A stretch of DNA of 64,000 nt from Hoplostethus atlanticus (lineage: Eukaryota > Chordata > Actinopteri > Trachichthyiformes > Trachichthyidae), in NCBI GenBank assembly GCA_034670405.1, contig JAXDDX010000327.1, forward strand, positions 62,001-126,000. The letters are read 5' to 3'. The notes under the pieces were generated by a model. The model ran no database searches. It saw nothing but the letters and a program-made list of their open reading frames with translations, and was not told where the DNA came from. Positions 10,065-60,176 of this stretch are shown here, in pieces. Positions within the stretch are counted from its first letter, which is position 1, and every line of letters starts with the position of its first letter. Both the position numbers and the translations under genes were made by a program.

Positions 10065-12000
10065 TGGTTGGTCACACACCAACCAACCAACTCACATAAA
10101 GAGTCACACACCAACCATCCAACTCACAGAACGAGTCACACACCAACCAACCAACTCACAGAACGAGTCACACACCAACCAACCAACTCACAGAAAGAGT
10201 CACACACCAACCAACCAACTCACAGAACGAGTCACACACCAACTCACAGAACGGGTCACACTCAACCAACCAACTCACAGAACGAGTCACACACCAACCA
10301 ACCAACTCACAGAAAGAGTCACACACCAACCAACCAACTCACAGAACGAGTCACACACCAACTCACAGAACGAGTCACACACCAACCAACCAACTCACAG
10401 AACGAGTCACACTCAACCAAACAACTCACAGAACGAGTCACACACCAACCAACCAACTCACAGAAAGAGTCACACACCAACCAACCAACTCACAGAACGA
10501 GTCACACACCAACCAACCAACTCACAGAACGAGTCACACACCAACTCACAGAACGAGTCACACACCAACTCACAGAATGAGTCACACACCAACCAACCAA
10601 CTCACAGAACGAGTCGCATTCAACCAACCAACTCACAGAACGAGTCACAAACCAGCCAACCAACTCACAGAAAGAGTCACACACCAACCAACCAACTCAC
10701 AGAAAGAGTCACACACCAACCAACCAACTCACAGAACGAGTCACACACCAACTCACAGAACGAGTCACACACCAACCAACCAACTCACAGAAAGAGTCAC
10801 AAACCAGCCAACCAACTCACAGAAAGAGTCACACACCAACCAACCAACTCACAGAACGAGTCACACTCAACCAAGCAACTCACAGAACGAGTCACACACC
10901 AACCAACCAACTCACAGAACGAGTCACACACCAACCAACCAACTCACAGAAAGAGTCACACACCAACCAACCAACTCACAGAAAGAGTCACACACCAACC
11001 AACCAACTCACAGAAAGAGTCACACACCAACCAACCAGCTCACAGAAAGAGTCACACACCAACCAACCAACTCACAGAAAGAGTCACACACCAACCAACC
11101 AACTCACAGAACGAGTCACACTCAACCAAGCAACTCACAGAACGAGTCACACACCAACCAACCAACTCACAGAAAGAGTCACACACCAACCAACCAGCTC
11201 ACAGAACGAGTCACACTCAACCAAGCAACTCACAGAACGAGTCACACACCAACCAACCAACTCACAGAAAGAGTCACACACCAACCAACCAGCTCACAGA
11301 AAGAGTCACACACCAACCAACCAACTCACAGAAAGAGTCACACACCAACCAACCAACTCACAGAACGAGTCACACTCAACCAAGCAACTCACAGAACGAG
11401 TCACACACCAACCAACCAACTCACAGAAAGAGTCACACACCAACCAACCAACTCACAGAGTCACACACCAACCAAACAACTCACAGAACGAGTCACACTC
11501 AACCAAGCAACTCACAGAAAGAGTCACACACCAACCATCCAACTCACAGAAAGAGTCACACACCAACTCACAGAACAAGTCACACACCAACCAACCAACT
11601 CACAGAACGAGTCACACTCAACCAACCAACTCACAGAACGAGTCACACACCAACCAACCAACTCACAGAAAGAGTCACACAACAACCAACCAACTCACAG
11701 AACGAGTCACACACCAACCAACCAACTCACAGAAAGAGTCACACAACAACCAACCAACTCACAGAACGAGTCACACACCAACTCACAGAACGAGTCACAC
11801 ACCAACCAACCAACTCACAGAACGAGTCACATTCAACCAACGAACTCACAGAACGAGTCACAAACCAGCCAACCAACTCACAAAAAAAGTCACACACCAA
11901 CCAACCAACTCACAGAAAGAGTCACACACCAACCAACCAACTCACAGAAAGAGTCACACACCAACCAACCAACTCACAGAACGGGTCACACACCAACTCG
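10065..12000. repeat. 32-bp minisatellite, about 60 copies
   Basis: The unit is 'gagtcacacaccaacc' plus 'aaccaactcacagaac' (32 bp). Deletion variants lack the 'caaccaac' core, and there are AAC/AAG and 'cacacc'/'cactcaacc' sub-types. Because 32 is not a multiple of three and the unit has no stop, all plus-strand frames stay open for long stretches. They read as a rotating peptide repeat (HTPTNQLTERV / THQPTNSQNES / HTNQPTHRTS). The open frames 10068-10580 and 10577-12169 are consequences of this, not genes. Confidence 0.95.
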
Positions 12001-31395: not shown

Positions 31396-33571
31396 TAATT
31401 AACTTATACTGCCCACTGATAGAGACAGAGACTGGCAGTCAGACAGACAGGTGTACCTAGGCACTGAGGCAGGTGGTCACAGGATGCTGTCTGTCTGTTG
31501 TCACCAGGGCAACCTTTACCAGGTGGGTTGGAGGAAGGGGCGGGGTTAGAGCAGGAACGGTAACGAGTCCTGAGAGAAGCATGGCCTTCTGGGATACAGG
31601 AAGTAGAACACTCCCCCCAACTGGACCAACCAGACCAGGCGCCGTCCACTGGTAGAGAGACATAGAGTCACACAGGGAGAGAGAGAGAGAGAGAAAAAAA
31701 ACCAACACAACAGAATAAAGCAAATTATGAATCAGTCAAAAGATATTTAGATATTTAGAACATTGGAGACACTAGAGTGTTATTTGGCCCTGAACAGAAC
31801 CTAAATCCACTCTGTCAGAGATAGGATCAGATCCTGACTAGATCCTGACCTGATCCAGGCTCAGTGACCAATTGGCTGTAGAAAAAGGAAGTTGTGTGTG
31901 TGTGTGTGTGTGTGTGTTACCAGGACATGTGCTACGACAGACGGTGGTTTGATCACTCGGTCCCTCACAGAGCTTGCCGCCATATTTGGGGGCGGGGCTA
32001 TCACATTTCCTGGTTGATATCCGAAGCCCCTCCCCACAGGAGACAGAGCAAGGCCCAGGGGGAAGCCACCCCCCCCAACTTCCAGCCACTGGAAAGACAG
32101 CCAATCAAAACAAATCCAGACTTTTAATATACATTTTACTTTCCAACAATAATGTTTGTATTCATGTCAGTTTGAGTTAAAAAAACATATGAACTCATTT
32201 TTGTAAATAAATCAACCAATCAAAGAGTCAGCCAACCAACCAACCGACCAACTAATCAATCAATCAATCCCTCTGTTGTAGTCATTAAGCCATACGTATG
32301 TTGGTGTGTGTCATAGCCAGGGGGAGTTTATTGGAGTTGTGGTTTGCTTGGTTCGACAGCTAATTGTTGAGGAAGGTGAGCGTGGTAATGTATAATCAAT
32401 CAGTCAACCAATCAATCAACCAATCAATCAGCTCCTCCCTCCTACCTGGACAGTTGGGTAGCTCACTACAGTTCTGGGTCTGGTTGTTGTCTCCAGGGCA
32501 ACTGTTGCCAGGCGGCACAGTGTCAGAGGAAGGGGCAGGGCTTGAACAGGAACGTTGACGGGTCTTGGTTGGGTAGGCCACACCCCCATCACCTGGTTGC
32601 CCCGGGATACAGGGAGCAGAACACGCCCCCCACTGTGACCAGCCAGACCAGCGGCCATGTACTACAGACATACAGACAGGTAAACCATGTTGGAAGTGAG
32701 ACAGGCTCTAGAGAGAGGGGTTAACATCTGGTCAGTGAGAAAGGCTGTAGAGAGGGGTTAACATCTGGTCAGTGAGACAGGCTGTAGAGAGGGGTTAACA
32801 TCTGGTCAGTGAGACAGGCTGTAGAGAGGGGTTAACATCTGGTCAGTGAGACAGGCTCTAGAGAGGGGTTAACATCTGGTCAGTGAGACAGGCTCTAGAG
32901 AGAGGGTAGTCAGACAGACAGGCAGGTTACCAGGACAGGCTGTCGTTCCACAGGTCTCATTCTGGGCTGCAGGTTAACAGACAGACAGGTAGTCAGACAG
33001 ACAGACAGACAGACAGGTTACCAGGACAGGCTGTCGTTCCACAGGTCTCATTCTGGGCTGCAGGTTAACAGACAGACAGGTAGTCAGACAGACAGACAGA
33101 CAGACAGACAGGTTACCAGGACAGGCTGTCGTTCCACAGGTCTCTGTCTGGGCTGCAGGTTAACAGACAGACAGGTAGTCAGACAGACAGACAGACAGAC
33201 AGACAGACAGGTTACCAGGACAGGCTGTCGCTCCACAGGTCTCTGTCTGGGCTGCAGGTTAACAGACAGACAGGTAGCCAGACAGACAGACAGACAGACA
33301 GGTAGTCAGACAGACAGACAGGTTACCAGGACAGGCTGTCGTTCCACAGGTCTCTGTCTGGGCTGCAGGTTAACAGACAGACAGGTAGTCAGACAGACAG
33401 ACAGACAGACAGACAGGTTACCAGGACAGGCTGTCGTTCCACAGGTCTCATTCTGGGCTGCAGGTTAACAGACAGACAGGTAGTCAGTCAGACAGACAGA
33501 CAGGTTACCAGGACAGGCTGTCGTTCCACAGGTCTCTGTCTGGGCTGCAGGTTAACAGACAGACAGGTAGT

Positions 33572-33602
<31 letters not shown>

Positions 33603-34670
33603 GTTACCAGGACAGGCTGTCGCTCCACAGGTCTCTGTCTGGGCTGCAGGTTAACAGACAGACAGGTAGTCAGACAGACAGACAGACAGGTTACCAGGAC
33701 AGGCTGTCGCTCCACAGGTCTCTGTCTGGGCTGCAGGTTAACAGACAGACAGGTAGTCAGACAGACAGACAGACAGACAGACAGTTAGTCAGACAGACAG
33801 ACAGGTTACCAGGACAGGCTGTCGCTCCACAGGTCTCTGTCTGGGCTGCAGGTTAACAGACAGACAGGTAGACAGACAGACAGACAGACAGACAGGTTAC
33901 CAGGACAGGCTGTTGCTCCACAGGTCTCTGTCTGGGCTGCAGGTTAACAGACAGACAGGTAGTCAGACAGACAGACAGACAGACAGACAGACAGGTTACC
34001 AGGACAGGCTGTCGCTCCACAGGTCTCTGTCTGGGCTGCAGGTTAACAGACAGACAGGTAGACAGACAGACAGACAGACAGACAGGTTACCAGGACAGGC
34101 TGTTGCTCCACAGGTCTCTGTCTGGGCTGCAGGTTAACAGACAGACAGGTAGACAGACAGACAGACAGACAGACAGGTTACCAGGACAGGCCGTCGCTCC
34201 ACAGGTCTCTGTCTGGGCTGCAGGTTAACAGACAGACAGGTAGTCAGACAGACAGACAGACAGACAGACAGGTAGTCAGACAGACAGACAGGTTACCAGG
34301 ACAGGCTGTCGCTCCACAGGTCTCTGTCTGGGCTGCAGGTTAACAGACAGACAGGTAGACAGACAGACAGACAGACAGACAGGTTACCAGGACAGGCTGT
34401 TGCTCCACAGGTCTCTGTCTGGGCTGCAGATTAACAGACAGACAGGTAGTCAGACAGACAGACAGACAGACAGACAGGTAGTCAGACAGACAGACAGGTT
34501 ACCAGGACAGGCTGTCGCTCCACAGGTCTCTGTCTGGGCTGCAGAGCCGCTGCAGGTTGAGCGACATTCAGGTTGGATGTGGGAACAGACTCTCTCTCTC
34601 CTCTTCACTCCTCCACCTCCACAGCTCACTGAGCAGGAAGACCAGGGGAGCCAGGGCTCCCACTGTCCCT

Positions 34671-36014: not shown

Positions 36015-36722
36015 TGACTTCTGGTTTTCCAATATTGCAATAGAGTTTCCAGGAAGTCAACCAACAGCCAATCAGCAGTAACTCTGAATATAGAACAAGC
36101 CATCGACTTGTTCTTTCAACTAACCCTAACCCTTTGTTGTAAATAGTTGTATGTAGCTTGATTTCATTTCAATTTTACCTTTATATGTTCACATTTGCAA
36201 CTTGTGTTTACATTTGCAACCTCTAAAATGCTTCATTGAGCATGTTTGTGTTTTTTATAGTAAAATAAACATTTTCCAAATCCGATTTTATGTGTTTTGG
36301 GTGTTTTGGGGTCCAATATGTTGACACAGTATGTCAAAATGAAAAAATAATTGTCAGGTATATAGGTGATGTTGTGCTGAAAAAAAGATACCAAACATTG
36401 GCATGGTAAACATTTTTTAACGTGGTATATAAAGGCAAAATCAAAAGTATTCAATTAGCCCAACACTCCTAAGGGTTAAGTTTAGCCCAAAGCTTCGTCT
36501 TCTTAACCAAGCAGCTTTAAGTTTAGCCCAAAGCTTCGTCTTCTTCACCAGCAGCTTTAAGTTTAGCCCAAAGCTTCGTCTTCTTCACCAGCAGCTTTAA
36601 GTTTAGCCTAAACAAGGTGGTGAAGGGTGACAGTCAGGGTCAGAGGTCACAGTAGAACAGAACAGTCACTGACCTGACGGCTCCACAGAAACCAGCAGGA
36701 GAACCAGAACCCACAGCCTCAT
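29710..36722 (-). CDS. cfp: Properdin (complement factor P), 11 coding exons
   Basis: Secreted positive regulator of the alternative complement pathway; oligomers stabilise the C3bBb convertase. The joined exons are 36674-36722, 35748-35886, 35406-35563, 34503-34670, 32446-32661, 31921-32088, 31457-31648, 31169-31342, 30871-31068, 30480-30591 and 29710-29848. They give 1713 nt (570 residues plus stop) with every GT-AG site and phase consistent. The protein has a signal peptide, an N-terminal Cys-rich TSR0 domain (CFSHFNLVSGQCEEEL, EDDCCQNPQYGYQ), eight TSRs with WxxWxxW and paired Cys motifs, and a split TSR6 ending LNVPACPQRDD. Mammalian properdin has six full TSRs and 469 residues in human; the extra length here is a second TSR3-TSR4 pair. 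TSR4 and its copy lack the third Trp, as in human TSR4. Assignment rests on domain order and near-identity of key phrases to properdin as I know it. Confidence 0.95.
29855..29906. repeat. (CA)n; (GT)n before the exon 11 acceptor
   Basis: On the transcript strand this is (GT)n ending 6 nt before the acceptor AG of properdin exon 11. Confidence 0.95.
30070..30465. repeat. Minisatellite of GGTTAGTTAGCTGGTT units (properdin intron 10)
   Basis: Diverged 4-mer/16-mer mixture of 'ggttagttagctggttggtt' and 'agatagctggt'. It fills most of the 629-bp intron. Confidence 0.9.
30480..30591 (-). CDS. cfp: Properdin exon 10: first half of TSR6
   Basis: Encodes PGRWVGWSDWSLCNPSC to RMRICDPDLSKYP (residues 488-524), aligning with human 'GSWSEWSTWGLCMPPC...LPKYP'. 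Acceptor ttccag|ta; donor cc|gtaagt (phase 2). Confidence 0.93.
30600..30864. repeat. (CAGA)n and (GT)n microsatellites (properdin intron 9)
   Basis: (CAGA/CCGA)n at 30600-30720 next to the exon 10 acceptor, and (GT)n at 30793-30863, which is (AC)n right after the exon 9 donor on the transcript strand. Confidence 0.95.
30871..31068 (-). CDS. cfp: Properdin exon 9: TSR5
   Basis: 198 nt, phase 1-1. Encodes VDGVWSEWSSWGQCKHLTP to VCFDITRCE (residues 422-487). The extended region between the first and second Cys groups matches human TSR5. Two sequons (NGS, NLT) are present. The donor c|gtgggttac is followed by a very long (AC)n. Confidence 0.95.
31169..31342 (-). CDS. cfp: Properdin exon 8: second TSR4-like repeat
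   Basis: 174 nt, phase 1-1. Encodes VDGGWGSWGPFTSCSVSCG to ICKTNVHCPG (residues 364-421). It shares RKCDSPAPK and the missing third Trp with exon 6. The donor g|gtacgcacac is followed by (AC)n; the next intron is only 100 nt. Confidence 0.95.
31457..31648 (-). CDS. cfp: Properdin exon 7: second TSR3-like repeat
   Basis: 192 nt, phase 1-1. Encodes VDGAWSGWSSWGECSTSC to SCDHLPQCLG (residues 300-363). It is most like exon 5 (shared RYRSCSNPAPSSNPPGKGCPGD-type loop and 'LPxC' ending). With exon 8 it forms a duplicate of the exon 5-6 pair. Confidence 0.95.
   Translation of the reverse strand, partial: WTAPGLVGPVGGSVLLPVSQKAMLLSGLVTVPALTPPLPPTHLVKVALVTTDRQHPVTTCLSA
31921..32088 (-). CDS. cfp: Properdin exon 6: TSR4
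   Basis: 168 nt, phase 1-1. Encodes VAGSWGGWLPPGPCSVSCGE to TTVCRSTCPG (residues 244-299). The third Trp is absent, as in human TSR4 (WGPWGPVSPC). The donor g|gtaacacac leads into (AC)n. Confidence 0.95.
32446..32661 (-). CDS. cfp: Properdin exon 5: TSR3
   Basis: 216 nt, phase 1-1. Encodes VHGRWSGWSQWGACSAPC to QNCSELPNCPG (residues 172-243). The long loop (PGQPGDGGVAYPTKTRQRSC) matches the insertion seen in human TSR3. Sequons NQT and NCS are present. Confidence 0.95.
32690..32915. repeat. Minisatellite, about 38-bp unit x5 (properdin intron 4)
   Basis: Units of 'gtgagacaggctctagagag' + 'gggttaacatctggtca'. It lies next to the exon-derived array. Confidence 0.9.
32917..34500 (-). repeat. 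Exon-derived minisatellite, 16 units of about 85-118 bp (properdin intron 4)
   Basis: Each unit on the transcript strand contains (CTGT)n, TTAACCTGCAG, a 36-nt piece of the TSR2 exon, then the donor gtaacc. In all units I checked, the spacing between the AG and the GT is exactly 36 nt and the frame is open. It would read AQTETCGATACP, or AQNETCGTTACP in units near 32930, 33020 and 33420. The units probably arose from the exon 4 / intron 4 boundary by loss of 11 nt between two CTGCAGC words. Whether any unit is spliced is unknown. Confidence 0.9.
34503..34670 (-). CDS. cfp: Properdin exon 4: TSR2
   Basis: Encodes EGQWEPWLPWSSCSVSCGGG to TETCGATACPG (residues 116-171). The acceptor follows a (TG)n run of about 66 nt. 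The last 36-46 nt of this exon plus its donor 'cctg|gtaacc' are the founder of the 16-unit minisatellite in the next intron. Confidence 0.95.
34675..34740. repeat. (CA)n; (GT)n before the TSR2 acceptor
   Basis: A 66-nt dinucleotide run, (GT)n on the transcript strand, ends at the acceptor gcag of exon 4. Confidence 0.95.
34800..35190. repeat. Inverted/tandem TTTATAAATGTTTATTAGTG array (properdin intron 3)
   Basis: 34800-34888 carries 'cattaataaacatttataaa' units, and 34889-35190 carries the complementary 'tttataaatgtttattagtg' units. The array therefore reverses orientation at about 34888 and can fold into a long hairpin. Confidence 0.85.
35371..35403. repeat. (GT)n; (AC)n after the TSR1 donor
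   Basis: Directly abuts the exon 3 donor. It pairs in principle with the (GT)n at the other end of intron 3. Confidence 0.95.
35406..35563 (-). CDS. cfp: Properdin exon 3: TSR1
   Basis: Encodes VWSPWSSWSPCTVLCGEG to TEPCTANCCDG (residues 63-115), with an intact WxxWxxW C-mannosylation-type motif. The acceptor is preceded by (TG)n and the donor g|gtacacac runs straight into (AC)n. Confidence 0.95.
35748..35886 (-). CDS. cfp: Properdin exon 2: N-terminal Cys-rich domain (TSR0)
   Basis: Acceptor 'gtgcag|ca' is preceded by (GT)n; donor is 'gcgg|gtaagt' (phase 2). Encodes residues 17-62 including ACVRCFSHFNLVSGQC and EDEDDCCQNPQYGYQADRGC, matching the properdin-specific truncated first domain (LCF..Y....G.C...L.....EDCC.N..FAYQ). 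Confidence 0.95.
36473..36612. repeat. Tandem 40-bp repeat (AAGTTTAGCCCAAAGCTTCG)
   Basis: About three and a half copies of 'aagtttagcccaaagcttcg' + 'tcttcttcaccagcagcttt' in properdin intron 1. The same unit recurs at 37250-37375 beside the duplicate exon. Confidence 0.9.
36674..36722 (-). CDS. cfp: Properdin exon 1: signal peptide
   Basis: ATG at 36722 encodes MRLWVLVLLLVSVEPS, a short hydrophobic leader, and ends phase 1 at the donor 'tcag|gtcagtg'. A TATA-like box lies 44 nt upstream. An identical copy of this exon lies at 37527-37575. Confidence 0.9.
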
Positions 36723-37526: not shown

Positions 37527-37575
37527 CTGACGGCTCCACAGAAACCAGCAGGAGAACCAGAACCCACAGCCTCAT
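37527..37575 (-). CDS. Duplicate properdin exon 1 (signal peptide), intact
   Basis: The 49-nt coding part is identical to exon 1: the same ATG, leader MRLWVLVLLLVSVEPS and donor 'tcag|gtcagtg'. Splicing to exon 2 would keep frame and give the same preprotein. It lies in a roughly 400-bp duplicated block that also contains the TATA box. It may act as an alternative first exon or be silent. Confidence 0.7.
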
Positions 37576-39780: not shown

Positions 39781-40216
39781 TGACATGGCTTTGATGATCA
39801 TTGTGTCTTACACTTTACTTGCAGCCAGCAAACACTGCTCATAAGTCCTCATAATTGTGTTATAGTATCATACAATTGCTGATAACCTTATACATTGCTG
39901 TCACTTGACTTAAAGCTCACAAAGTCATGCTATAGCGTATTATTGATGTTTATAAGACTTGATACATTAGAGCAGTTCTCTATGTGTCTTTATAACTGGC
40001 TAAAGTTTGGTAGTTATAATGGACTCAGATTCTTCTTTCAAACACTGTTGTCACTTGGCGTGGCGTTATAAAGCGTTATGAATGCTGAACTTAGAATACA
40101 TTATGTCCACCACTTATAATACTTTATAAACCTTGTTATAAGGTGTCATGCATGATTATAAACATTTATAACGCGTTTTATGAAGCCTTATAAATGCATT
40201 ATAATGTGTTACGAAT
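39781..40216. repeat. TTATAA-rich dispersed repeat
   Basis: Many 'cattataa', 'cttataa' and 'ttataatg' words at 10-25-bp spacing ('aaatgcattataatgtgtta', 'tgcttatgatgcattataga'). From memory this is a common fish interspersed repeat; its class is uncertain. Confidence 0.45.
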
Positions 40217-41989
40217 GTGCTTATGATGCATTATAGACATGACCTTCATAGAAATCAATTCATTAATTCTTCAGTTCTTCATATGGATGAACGCCAGACG
40301 CCAGACTCCCCGGCTGGTGCCCTGCGCACCAACCGCACCTATCTGCCTTCCACCCATCCCTCTCTACCACCCTCTCCACCTTTTCCCTTCCCACCTCCCT
40401 CCCTATCCCATTTTTCTCCCCTCTCCCCAGACGAGGTCCTTCACCTTGTTACATCTAGCCGCCCCACCACATGCTCCCTTGACCCGGTCCCATCCACTCT
40501 GCTTCAGTCTACTGCACCTGAACTCCTTCCCTTCCTGACCCACCTCATCAACGCGTCTCTGGTGTCTGGATGCTTTCCCTCTGCTTTCAAGACTGCCAGA
40601 GTCACCCCCCTTCTGAAGAAACCAACACTTGACCCCTCTGAGGTCAAGAACTACAGACCGGTTTCCCTTCTACCCTTCCTATCAAAAACTCTTGAACGTG
40701 CTGTCTTCAAGCAACTGTCCTTGTACCTCCACCAGAACAACCTCTTGGATCCCCACCAGTCTGGGTTCAAAGTGGGTCACTCGACCGAGACTGCCCTCCT
40801 GGCAGTGACGGAGTCGCTCCATGCCGCTAGAGCAAACTCTCTCTCCTCTGTCCTGATACTCCTGGACCTGTCTGCAGCGTTTGACACGGTGAACCACCAG
40901 ATCCTCCTCTCCACCCTTGAGGGGATGGGTGTCTCAGGCTCTGCACTCTCCATGTTTGCATCCTACCTAACGGATCGCTCCTACCAGGTGACGCTGAGAG
41001 GGTCTGTGTCAGAACCACGCAGGCTCACTACTGGGGTTCCGCAAGGCTCGGTTCTAGGCCCTCTCCTCTTTTCCCTCTACACAACATCTCTTGATTCTGT
41101 TATCCATTCACACAACTTTTCCTACCACTGCTATGCAGATGACACCCAGCTGATCCTGTCATTTCCCCCCTCTGACACACAAGTGGAGGCACGCATTGCT
41201 GCATGTCTGGCAGACATCTCGGAGTGGATGTCGATGCACCACCTGAAGCTCAACCTGGACAAAACTGAGCTGATGTTCCTCCCGGGGAAGGGCTGTCCGC
41301 ACCGAGACCTGGCCATCACCATTGATAATGCTGTGGTGACGTCAACTCAGACTGCGAGGAATCTGGGTGTGACCCTGGACGACCAACTGTCGTTCTCGGC
41401 AAACATCGCATCAGTGACACGCTCCTGCAGATTCCTCCTCTACAACATCAGGAGGATTCGCCCCTTCCTCACTGACAAGGCAGCGCAGGTGCTCATCCAG
41501 GCTCTTGTCATCTCCCGCCTGGACTACTGCAACTCCCTCCTTGCTGGTGCCCCGGCGTTTGCCATCAGACCTCTGGAGCTTGTTCAGAAAGCTGCAGCTC
41601 GTCTGGTGTTCAACCGCCCCAAGTTCTCCCATACAACTACCCTTCTCCGTTCTCTACACTGGCTACCTGTAGCGGCTCGCATCCAGTTCAAGACCCTGGT
41701 GCTAGCCTATAGGGCAGTGAAAGGAACAGCTCCTTCTTACCTCCAGGCTATGGTCAAGCCTTACACCCCCGCCCGACCACTTCGCTCTGCTGCCTCGAGG
41801 CGACTGGTTGCCCCGTCGCTCAGAAGGCCCTGCGGCCGATCTACACGGTCACGGCTCTTCTCTGTCCTGGCCCCGCAGTGGTGGAATGAACTCCCCACTG
41901 ATGTCAGGACAGCAGAGTCGCTGCCCATCTTTCGCCGCAGGCTGAAAACCCACCTCTTCAGGAAACACTACCCTGACTCTTCCTCTTAG
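40217..41989 (+). CDS. L2 LINE ORF2: reverse transcriptase, intact frame (5'-truncated element)
   Basis: A 590-codon frame with a full RT domain. Fingers VTPLLKKPTLDPSEVKNYRP; motif A LLDLSAAFDTVNH (about residue 220); motif [14 protein letters not shown] (about 275); motif C CYADDTQ with both catalytic Asp (about 307); thumb LNLDKTELMFLPGKG. Then come the L2 tail phrases SRLDYCNSLLAGAP, LLRSLHWLPVAARIQFK, PQWWNELPTDVR and a C-terminal FRKHYPDSSS. The endonuclease domain is absent, so the first Met is probably not the native start and the copy is 5'-truncated. The absence of stops or frameshifts implies recent insertion. Confidence 0.9.
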   Translation: MLMMHYRHDLHRNQFINSSVLHMDERQTPDSPAGALRTNRTYLPSTHPSLPPSPPFPFPPPSLSHFSPLSPDEVLHLVTSSRPTTCSLDPVPSTLLQSTAPELLPFLTHLINASLVSGCFPSAFKTARVTPLLKKPTLDPSEVKNYRPVSLLPFLSKTLERAVFKQLSLYLHQNNLLDPHQSGFKVGHSTETALLAVTESLHAARANSLSSVLILLDLSAAFDTVNHQILLSTLEGMGVSGSALSMFASYLTDRSYQVTLRGSVSEPRRLTTGVPQGSVLGPLLFSLYTTSLDSVIHSHNFSYHCYADDTQLILSFPPSDTQVEARIAACLADISEWMSMHHLKLNLDKTELMFLPGKGCPHRDLAITIDNAVVTSTQTARNLGVTLDDQLSFSANIASVTRSCRFLLYNIRRIRPFLTDKAAQVLIQALVISRLDYCNSLLAGAPAFAIRPLELVQKAAARLVFNRPKFSHTTTLLRSLHWLPVAARIQFKTLVLAYRAVKGTAPSYLQAMVKPYTPARPLRSAASRRLVAPSLRRPCGRSTRSRLFSVLAPQWWNELPTDVRTAESLPIFRRRLKTHLFRKHYPDSSS

Positions 41990-43551: not shown

Positions 43552-44063
43552 GAAAACTGGAGAATCTTTTTGTATAGAAGGTTCAACAAACTCTGGTTTC
43601 ATCTGCTGAGCTGCTTCATGTTTCATACAGTAATTTAAATCCTATGTTTTTAAAAATGAAAGACAATTTAAAATGTAATTGAAGTAAGACACCCTAAATT
43701 ATTAAGAGTGTGGTGAATCTACTGTTTAGGGTCAGTCTCTCTCTGTCTGTCTGTCTCTCTCTATCTGTCAGTGTCTCTCTGTCTCTCTCTCTCTCTCTAT
43801 CTGTCAGTGTCTCTCTGTCTGTCTCTCTCTCTCTGTCTGTCTGTCTCTCTCTATCTGTCTGTCTCTCTCTGTCTCTCTCTCTGACTGAGCGGGCGTTTGC
43901 GTTCTCCTATCTGGGCAGTGTTGGCGTCTGCGTGGTCCCTAGTCCTAGGACGATGCTGACTGAGCTGCCGTTGCTGTGATGCCTCATCAGATCTGGATGT
44001 CCCACCATAATAAACCTTTATGCATTGTGTATACGCTGCTTGCCCAAACTCGCAACCCAGTTT
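43551..44063. repeat. Local duplication B, inserted copy
   Basis: Matches 48121-48633 (offset 4570) without a visible difference, including the (CTCT/CTGT)n length at 43735-43885. It contains the 'gatctggatgtcccaccata' repeat. Confidence 0.9.
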
Positions 44064-48120: not shown

Positions 48121-48633
48121 TGAAAACTGGAGAATCTTTTTGTATAGAAGGTTCAACAAACTCTGGTTTCATCTGCTGAGCTGCTTCATGTTTCATACAG
48201 TAATTTAAATCCTATGTTTTTAAAAATGAAAGACAATTTAAAATGTAATTGAAGTAAGACACCCTAAATTATTAAGAGTGTGGTGAATCTACTGTTTAGG
48301 GTCAGTCTCTCTCTGTCTGTCTGTCTCTCTCTATCTGTCAGTGTCTCTCTGTCTCTCTCTCTCTCTCTATCTGTCAGTGTCTCTCTGTCTGTCTCTCTCT
48401 CTCTGTCTGTCTGTCTCTCTCTATCTGTCTGTCTCTCTCTGTCTCTCTCTCTGACTGAGCGGGCGTTTGCGTTCTCCTATCTGGGCAGTGTTGGCGTCTG
48501 CGTGGTCCCTAGTCCTAGGACGATGCTGACTGAGCTGCCGTTGCTGTGATGCCTCATCAGATCTGGATGTCCCACCATAATAAACCTTTATGCATTGTGT
48601 ATACGCTGCTTGCCCAAACTCGCAACCCAGTTT
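48121..48633. repeat. Local duplication B, second copy
   Basis: Partner of 43551-44063; appears to be the source locus because its flanks on both sides differ from block A. Confidence 0.85.
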
Positions 48634-57279: not shown

Positions 57280-60176
57280 AAGGGGGGGTATTTTACTCAT
57301 TTTGGGCTATTTAAAACTGTTTCCAGGGGTCTTGACAAGATGTTTTTGAAGTCTATATCAAACAAAAATCCTAAAACCAGCTTCTGTGGTGTGTGTTTCA
57401 GTCTCTCATTTTCTCCATTGTAAAGAACAGACTGTTTTGAGGGCGTGGAGGTTGTATGTAATGAGCACTGCTCTGATTGGCCGCCTCACGCCTCACTCAC
57501 GGCGTGAGGCCGTACATGTTTGAGTCTGACCCAGAATGGGAAGAGGCAGCTGAGCGGTTCCACTTAGTTTCTCAATGATAACAATTCTGTGTAATATTGT
57601 ACTTTGTTTTGTGTATGTGGGTGTGTGAGCGACACTCTCTGCTGTAGCCGGTCTGTTTATGGCTCATGTCCATAAGCTTATTGAATAGTGACACCCAGCT
57701 GATCCTGTCATTTCCCCCCTCTGACACACAAGTGGAGGCACGCATTGCTGCATGTCTGGCAGACATCTCGGAGTGGATGTCGATGCACCACCTGAAGCTC
57801 AACTTGGACAAGACTGAGCTGGTGTTCCTCCCGGGGAAGGGCTGTCCGCACCGAGACCTGGCCATCACCATTGATAATGCTGTGGTGACGTCAACTCGGA
57901 CTGCGAGGAATCTGGGTGTGACCCTGGACGACCAACTGTCGTTCTCGGCAAACATCGCATCAGTGACACGCTCCTGCAGATTCCTCCTCTACAACATCAG
58001 GAGGATTCGCCCCTTCCTCACTGACAACGCAGCGCAGGTGCTCATCCAGGCTCTTGTCATCTCCCACCTGGACTACTGCAACTCCCTCCTTGCTGGTGCC
58101 CCGGCGTCTGCCATCAGACCTCTGGAGCTTGTTCAGAAAGCTGCAGCTCGTCTGGTGTTCAACCGCCCCAAGTTCTCCCATACAACTACCCTTCTCCGTT
58201 CTCTACACTGGCTCCCTGTAGCAGCTCGCATCCAGTTCAAGACCCTGGTGCTAGCCTATAGGGCAGTCAAAGGAACAGCTCCTTCTTACCTCCAGGCTAT
58301 GGTCAAGCCTTACACCCCCGCCCGACCACTTCGCTCTGCTGCCTCGAGGCGACTGGTTGCCCCGTCGCTCAGAGGTCCCTGGGGGCCGATCTACACGGTC
58401 ACGGCTCTTCTCTGTTCTGGCCCCGCAGTGGTGGAATGAACTCCCCACTGATGTCAGGACAGCAGAGTCGCTGCCCATCTTTCGCCGCAGGCTGAAAACC
58501 CACCTCTTCAGGAAACACTACCCTGACCCTTCCTCTTAGCCTTGCCTATTTGTCATCAATTATGTGTCTGAGCTCTTGTTTATTGGCTCTTGTTTATTTG
58601 ATACACTTATTTGTCTTAGCTCTTGTTTATTTGGTTCACTTATTTGTCTTAGCTCTTGTTTATTTGGTTCACTTATTTGTCTTAGCTCTTGTTTATTTGA
58701 TTCTCTTATTTGTCTCATTTGTTTAAGATAAAGTAGGTTGCTAACTTATTGCACTCTTACCTTAACACTAGTTATGCTCTTAGTTGCTTGTTTAGGAAGG
58801 AAATGCACTTACGATTTCTGGTGACTAGTACTTTTCTTGCCTACCTATGTTGAATGCACTTATTGTAAGTTGCTTTGGATAAAAGCGTCTGCTAAATGAC
58901 TGTAATGTAATGTAATGTAATGAATACAACTTGCAGACAAGCTAGGATTGACAATTTTGTTGAGCTAGTTAGCCAATATATTATTGCAGCGCAGCGCACA
59001 CAACCAAACGCGATTGTACTAATGGTGGCTAAAGTTTACCAAGCCTGACACGTTCGACAGACCTATAAAACAGACACTGGTCCCAACAAATAACTTTAAG
59101 ATGAGTCCTGACTCCAAGCAATAACTTTAAGATGAGTCCTGACTCCAACCAATAACTTTACTTTTACTTTACTTTACTTTTAATGACTCCAGCTTTAGTT
59201 TTCTTACTTCTTCCAAGCCCTACAAGCCCGTGGCTAGCCCCGGCTAGCTCGTTAGCTAACCAGCAGTCGAATATACTAACCAGACTAATTTGGTAAATTA
59301 AATCAAAACATGGTGACACTTACAGATTCCAAGTTTGCAGATGGGTCACGTACCTTATGAATTGCTCCATCTTTAAGCTTCAATTTAGATGATAATCCTG
59401 CCGTTGCTCAAGCAGTCTGAGGACTGATCATCACACACAGAAGAAATGAGCTAACTGTAGCCGAGCTAACTGTAGCCGTTGAAGTTAAAAATAAAATGAA
59501 TCCGCTCTGTTCTGGCATTTTCGCGTGTTAGGAGACTGTGGATCTATGTTGCTGCCTGCATCCTACAACATAATAACTGGAGAGTTGATATATCGCCGTA
59601 GATATGTTGTTGTTTTAGTTCCACTGGTCGCAAAGTAATGGAGCATTCCTGTGTACTCGGAAAAAACGGCGTCCGAATGTGATATGCGCCGATTCTATTC
59701 ACTAATGGCGCTGTAGTAGTTGATGTTGAGTTTAGATGCTTGTAACATTCTGAGACTTGCCATTCAAACATGAGTTTGCTGAGGGCGATTATGTTTTCCC
59801 GAGCAGATGCACTGGAACACATTTAGATTGGAAGTTAGGAATACCGACTCGGAATTATCGATTTCTGAGTACAATGGAATGCACCATAAACAACGGCTTG
59901 CACTGCCGAGAGCTGCATTTTGAGACGAGGTAAATGGGAGTGGTTGTTCACCTGGGCATGGGCATGCTCTGAGAGGGGTTGGATTATGTTAAGAAGCGCC
60001 CGTTATGACGTCCAAAGGGGCTACTTTCTGATTTTGCACCGTTTTTGGAAAAAGGAAAATACAGAAAAACGGGTTGACTTCCAGATTTCATATTTTCTCG
60101 GCTACTTAGGTCAACGATAACCTGTGGAACATGTATAAGGGCCAGGAATAAGCCGTTTTCCATAATATGACCCCTT
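57280..60176 (-). mobile_element. Second copy of the 1.8-kb TIR element, inverted, with L2 insertion
   Basis: 57280-57687 and 58922-60176 are the reverse complement of 16250-18070. They start AAGGGGGGGTATTTTACTCA and end CATAATATGACCCCTT, with TTTA/TTTAA outside. The hairpin near 57440-57510 is shorter here. An L2 copy splits it at 57689-58921. Confidence 0.85.
57689..58921 (+). mobile_element. 5'-truncated L2 LINE with 6-bp TSD
   Basis: It begins inside RT motif C (TGACACCCAGCTGATCC, just after YAD) and runs collinear with 41137-42340 to the (TGTAA)n tail. TGAATA flanks it at 57682-57687 and 58921-58926. The intact ORF2 tail reads LNLDKTELVFLPGKG to SLRGPWGPIY, then shifts frame near 58375 before resuming ELPTDVRTAESLP to FRKHYPDPSS (stop at 58537-58539). 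Two or more extra 'cttatttgtcttagctcttg' units occur in its 3' UTR relative to the 41-kb copy. Confidence 0.92.

What the first reader, a model, noticed from the sequence alone, without database searches (positions are those of the whole stretch)
32917..34670. Sixteen in-frame candidate micro-exons generated by a minisatellite from the properdin TSR2 exon
Seen: intron 4 of properdin is filled by 16 tandem units. Each holds (CTGT)n, 'ttaacctgcag', a 36-nt copy of the 3' end of exon 4, and the authentic donor 'g|gtaacc'. The AG-to-GT distance is exactly 36 nt (12 codons). Phase is 1-1, the same as the TSR exons, and no stop appears. Inclusion of any number of units would add n x 12 residues (AQTETCGATACP) at the end of TSR2, each with two Cys. 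Inference: the units arose from the exon 4 boundary by loss of 11 nt between two CTGCAGC words, then expanded together with the donor. At minimum there are 16 competing donors downstream of the true one; at most this is a length-variable, polymorphic exon cassette in a complement regulator.
Basis: partly seen in the sequence, partly recalled or inferred. Interest (0 to 1): 0.9.

Follow-up and report, generated by a model that had tools for sequence, protein, structure and literature searches.

The report
Exon-edge minisatellite in fish properdin intron
In a fish gene for the complement protein properdin, a repeat array copied the end of one exon together with its splice signals sixteen times into the next intron, so each copy looks like a tiny in-frame exon, but nothing found here shows that the copies are used.

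Summary
On the minus strand, intron 4 of an intact 570-aa fish properdin gene begins with 16 tandem units. Each has an AG acceptor, a 36-nt copy of the end of exon 4 and the same gtaacc donor; all 16 are phase 1-1 and open. In-frame, stop-free, 16-fold repetition is one founding event copied, not 16 coincidences. Five of 36 core sites vary against 1 of 20 flanking sites, so no coding constraint is visible.

Splice signals are good: donors equal exon 4's own, acceptors score above those of exons 4 and 5, and 11 of 16 have CTGAC 27 nt upstream. But 13 of 16 spacers are under 76 nt, the likely minimal vertebrate intron size (PMC9438311), so at most 9 units could be joined in series. Downstream donors used as exon 4 extensions all give a stop. 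Three searches listed no protein with extra units, none known to be from this species. Best reading: a mostly silent exon-edge minisatellite making pseudo-exons, possibly with leaky +12-residue splicing into unit 1 (79-nt intron). No RNA was available.

The parts
34503..34670 (-). properdin exon 4 (TSR2), 168 nt, phase 1-1; donor CTG|gtaacc
   Evidence: gene model; Pfam TSP_1 E 1.5e-15 on the TSR2-TSR3 stretch; homologs
34503..34538 (-). last 36 nt of exon 4, the coding member of the repeat family
   Evidence: identical to the cores of 6 of 16 units (variant list)
32931..34502 (-). array of 16 units in intron 4: spacer gtaacc(tgtc)n...ttaacctgcag, then 36-nt core with gtaacc donor
34388..34423 (-). 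unit 1 core, 79 nt from the exon 4 donor, the unit best placed for splicing (CTGAC 27 nt upstream)
32931..32966 (-). unit 16 core (last), 269 nt from exon 5
32446..32661 (-). properdin exon 5 (TSR3), phase 1-1
32695..32907 (-). separate 37-nt minisatellite (5.7 copies) containing GTTAACC, directly downstream of the unit array in intron 4
   Evidence: sequence

Best explanation
A minisatellite captured the exon 4/intron 4 boundary of a working fish properdin gene. A tandem duplication joined an intronic (CTGT)n/GTTAACC stretch to a CTGCAG word inside exon 4, so each unit carries a 3' splice site, the last 36 nt of exon 4 and its donor; slippage and unequal exchange then expanded it to 16 units and kept exon tail and units alike. 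The units are structurally complete pseudo-exons. Most are probably skipped because they are short and 13 of 16 spacers are below the minimal intron size; the most likely leak is exon 4 to unit 1 (79-nt intron), adding 12 residues. Shown: anatomy, frame, signals, intact reading frame of the gene. Inferred: origin steps, skipping, leak.
For: Exact 36-nt cores with AG and gtaacc in 17 of 17. Intact 570-aa ORF over 11 exons. Exon 4 tail identical to 6 of 16 unit cores; mean pairwise identity of the 17 cores 95.8%. 5 of 36 core sites vary against 1 of 20 flank sites (Fisher p 0.40); 2 of the 4 change types are synonymous (2 or more of 4 expected with probability 0.29 by chance), and no stop after 4 random changes has probability 0.82, so no coding constraint is needed to explain the cores. 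Spacers 51-79 nt, 13 of 16 under 76 (PMC9438311 passages). In one search, 114 of 117 alignable homologs (fish and some other animals) have 52-64 residues across the TSR2-TSR3 stretch (query 61); the outliers P0087, P0100 and P0108 show no such unit. Of the 3 unaligned rows P0001 and P0082 show none, and P0110 lacks TSR1 and TSR2 and says nothing. 26.7% of the window is tandem repeat, so capture of an exon edge is not surprising.
Against: Signals look usable: with a crude position matrix from recalled frequencies unit acceptors score 2.5-3.1, against -0.3 (exon 4) and 1.0 (exon 5) and 2.1-3.9 for exons 6-11; donors 1.1, equal to exons 4 and 6; 11 of 16 have CTGAC 27 nt upstream of the acceptor. 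The first spacer (79 nt) is close to the 76-nt teleost intron peak. A chain of 9 units with introns of 76 nt or more exists. RNA folding gave no silencing structure: z -0.31 for one unit, and several authentic AGs are also predicted paired. Absence from protein databases is weak, as no sequence known to be from this species was found.
Confidence: 0.72

Rival explanations
1. A used micro-exon cassette: intron-definition splicing strings together every second or so unit, so properdin chains of different lengths are made, each unit adding AQTETCGATACP (or a near variant) with two Cys at the end of TSR2.
For: All 16 units phase 1-1, open, with AG and GT; 11 of 16 with CTGAC at -27; acceptors better than those of exons 4 and 5. 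1-, 9- and 16-unit isoforms all stay in frame to the normal stop.
Against: 13 of 16 spacers under 76 nt. No protein with tandem units listed in three searches, though only P0001 (Diretmus, 77%) is at all close to this species. No visible constraint on the cores. The extra Cys pairs have no partner in the recalled TSR disulphide pattern.
Confidence: 0.15
2. A harmful or regulatory decoy: the extra donors and acceptors cause intron retention or exon 4 extension with a premature stop, lowering properdin output in proportion to copy number.
For: All 16 downstream donors give a stop at codon 189 if used to extend exon 4; the retained intron also has stops.
Against: No expression or copy-number data; exon 4's own donor comes first and has the same score.
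Confidence: 0.1
3. An assembly error: the copy number, or the array itself, was made by misassembly of reads.
For: Long arrays with near-identical units are prone to miscounting (general knowledge).
Against: Spacer lengths and core variants differ from unit to unit in an irregular order, and the gene's reading frame is intact.
Confidence: 0.03

Closest known systems
SmPoMuc polymorphic mucins of Schistosoma mansoni (PMC2576457, passages read)
   Same: A tiny exon (27 bp exon 2) repeated in tandem with flanking intron, up to 20 copies, microsatellites between units, high identity between copies, concerted evolution proposed.
   Different: There the unit is about 1 kb, so introns are long enough to splice, and cDNAs with variable repeat numbers are reported. 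Here spacers are 51-79 nt and no transcript is known.
[quoted passage not shown] it cites Rogers 1989, Hellsten 2011 and 24-bp AGGT repeats in fission yeast)
   Same: Tandem duplication of a segment spanning an exon edge copies ready-made splice signals; a multiple tandem duplication with AGGT is a reported form.
   Different: Here 16 copies lie inside an existing intron and splicing of the new introns is not shown.
Notothenioid antifreeze glycoprotein gene (PMC3449122, passages read, citing Chen 1997, itself not read)
   Same: In a fish, a short sequence straddling an intron-exon boundary was amplified into a repeat.
   Different: There the 9-bp repeat came to encode the tripeptide backbone; here each 36-nt copy is isolated by a spacer and would need splicing.

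Membership tests
Properdin (complement factor P) | N-terminal TSR-type domain, serial TSRs, homology to properdin | tested here: met
   PF18487 and TSP_1 hits; best hits fish properdins, 77% to Diretmus; PDB properdin chain 9u62_P E 1.6e-84; intact 570-aa ORF
Cassette micro-exon | Short, multiple of 3, same phase on both sides, open | tested here: met
   16 of 16 units 36 nt, phase 1-1, no stop
Cassette micro-exon | Flanking introns long enough to be spliced in series | tested here: not met
   13 of 16 spacers under 76 nt (size from PMC9438311); 3 of 16 are 79 nt, so single or skipped-unit inclusion stays possible
Cassette micro-exon | Inclusion in mRNA | not testable with these tools
   No RNA reads; protein searches listed none, but no sequence known to come from this species was found
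SmPoMuc-like tandem micro-exon array | Repeated exon plus flanking intron, microsatellite-separated, homogenised | tested here: met
SmPoMuc-like tandem micro-exon array | Transcripts with variable numbers of repeats | not testable with these tools
   no RNA data
Tandem-duplication intron gain | Duplicated segment supplies the GT and AG of new introns | tested here: met
   each of 16 spacers starts gtaacc and ends ctgcag
Tandem-duplication intron gain | The new introns are spliced | not testable with these tools
   no RNA data

The most novel reading that the evidence does not exclude
The array is a length-variable cassette: intron-definition splicing uses unit 1 and roughly every second unit, so individuals with different copy numbers make properdins with different extra Cys-containing segments at the TSR2-TSR3 joint, while exchange between array and exon 4 keeps rewriting the coding end of TSR2.
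Probability: 0.1. Interest if true: 0.8.

Novelty: new variant of a known kind. Interest (0 to 1): 0.42.

Why it matters
It is a natural, clean test of what decides whether an exon-like sequence is used: 16 near-identical pseudo-exons with the same donor and almost the same acceptor differ mainly in spacer length (51-79 nt) and in having CTGAC or not. It also shows a coding exon end that belongs to a mostly non-coding repeat family, so repeat turnover could change a complement protein. If units are spliced in, it would be a vertebrate counterpart of the schistosome tandem micro-exon mucins.

Tried and rejected
RNA hairpin silencing: the AG of the units is predicted paired, but the one unit tested folds no better than shuffles (z -0.31) and several authentic acceptors are predicted paired too, so dropped.

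A 12-exon gene model: my first model held a false exon at 30046-29940; homologs show exon 10 joins 29848 directly, and that gives an intact ORF.

Selection on the cores: neither constraint nor its absence can be proved from 5 variable sites.

Odontesthes P0108 (165 residues between the two anchor points) looked like a parallel, but its protein has several intron-like insertions, so it is probably an annotation effect. One search translated exon 4 in a wrong frame and was not used. An earlier count gave 55x6 spacers marked 'check'; the right count is 55x5.

Paper searches; none of the titles and abstract openings listed describes a minisatellite of this kind in properdin. Only PMC2576457, PMC4974935, PMC3449122 and PMC9438311 were opened, and of these only passages were read. 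Most subscription papers are not held.

Full report
What is there. By its protein matches the window is from a ray-finned fish (species not identified); the gene lies on the minus strand. The predicted protein's best hits are fish properdins, 77% identical to Diretmus argenteus, 68% to Polymixia and Myripristis, and it matches solved properdin chains. With exon 1 at 36722-36674 and exon 10 joined directly to 29848, eleven exons give an intact 570-aa protein. Exons 4 to 9 are all phase 1-1.

Intron 4 (1841 nt, the longest in the model) begins with 16 tandem units after the exon 4 tail. In 17 of 17 copies an AG lies exactly 36 nt before gtaacc, and 17 of 17 are open in the exon frame. 10 of 16 units encode AQTETCGATACP, 3 AQTETCGTTACP, 3 AQNETCGTTACP.

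How far it exceeds chance. The units descend from one founder, so they are one observation. The founder is open because it copies coding sequence; a length divisible by 3 has a chance of about one in three. Core variation (5 of 36 sites) is not lower than in the non-repetitive flanks (1 of 20; Fisher p 0.40), the four splice dinucleotide bases would stay invariant with probability about 0.64 at the observed rate, and four random changes would leave no stop with probability about 0.82. So neither frame retention nor intact splice sites need selection; with so few changes, selection is not excluded either.

Splice signals. With a position matrix from recalled human-like frequencies (not MaxEnt), unit donors score 1.1, as do those of exons 4 and 6; unit acceptors 2.5-3.1, against -1.1, -2.1 and -0.3 for exons 2-4, 1.0 for exon 5 and 2.1-3.9 for exons 6-11. 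CTGAC lies 27 nt before the acceptor in 11 of 16 units. At the same thresholds the seven other introns scored hold 3 pseudo-exons of 20-150 nt, none a multiple of 3, against 27 (21 multiples of 3) in the array. Among 20 minisatellites in the window read on both strands, three array-strands have any such pair (27, 13 and 2), and this one has the most.

What limits splicing. Spacers in order are 79, 55, 79, 55, 55, 63, 55, 79, 51, 63, 51, 59, 75, 63, 59, 55, then 269 nt to exon 5. A study of teleost introns puts the short-intron peak and likely minimal size at 76 bp, with frequency dropping rapidly below (PMC9438311, passages). 13 of 16 spacers are below that. Chains using only introns of at least 76 nt hold at most 9 units. 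Each of the 16 downstream donors used to lengthen exon 4 meets a stop at codon 189 (index 188 from zero). The place to look is exon 4 to unit 1, a 79-nt intron.

Search for use. Of 855 homologs the best 120 were listed; 117 could be aligned over the TSR2-TSR3 joint and 114 have 52-64 residues there (query 61). The outliers P0087 and P0100 (named Corticium and Mytilus) hold an extra TSR, and P0108 has read-through sequence. Of the three unaligned, P0001 and P0082 show no extra unit and P0110 lacks TSR1 and TSR2 altogether. Searches with isoforms carrying 4 and 2 extra units returned P0001 and P0051, and P0121; none has a repeated unit. Pattern checks over all 121 proteins found no tandem unit at the end of TSR2. 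None of these sequences is known to come from this species, so absence is weak evidence.

Origin (inference). Exon 4 reads CTCAACCTGCAGCGGCTCTGCAGCCCAG and the units GTTAACCTGCAGCCCAG. The GTTAACC could come from the neighbouring 37-nt minisatellite (32695-32907), which holds GTTAACC, joined through the shared AACC. The exon tail equals 6 of 16 unit cores, while 6 of 16 cores, all in the far half of the array, encode Thr where Diretmus also has Thr. That would fit an exon tail changed together with the near units, but rests on one relative's protein and no DNA.

Verdict. Observation confirmed; interpretation partly supported. Best reading: an exon-edge minisatellite producing pseudo-exons, mainly silent, with possible low-level +12-residue splicing.

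Noticed in passing
36674-36722 and 37527-37575: The signal-peptide exon 1 is present twice, about 850 nt apart, inside a duplication (256-bp piece at 95% identity); the 60 nt from the ATG through the donor are identical.
   Followed up: partly
window 1-64000: 26.7% of the window is tandem repeat (TRF), including an array with 62 copies at 10071-11997.
   Followed up: partly
P0001 (Diretmus argenteus properdin, partial): The annotated protein joins TSR2 (ACPG) straight into what is the middle of our exon 5 (DGGVAYPT), skipping the start of TSR3; our exon 5 has an AG at that place.
   Followed up: no
P0108 (Odontesthes bonariensis): Annotated protein has an insertion of about 100 residues with short repeats at the same exon 4/5 joint, plus other intron-like insertions; probably retained introns in the annotation.
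   Followed up: partly
40205-41989 +: 594-aa open frame that looks like a non-LTR reverse transcriptase (recalled resemblance, not searched); a similar partial frame lies at 57648-58439.
   Followed up: no
43731-43882 and 48301-48452: Two TRF arrays with the same period, copies and score (18-nt GTCTGTCTCTCTCTGTCT) 4.57 kb apart, suggesting a larger duplication.
   Followed up: no
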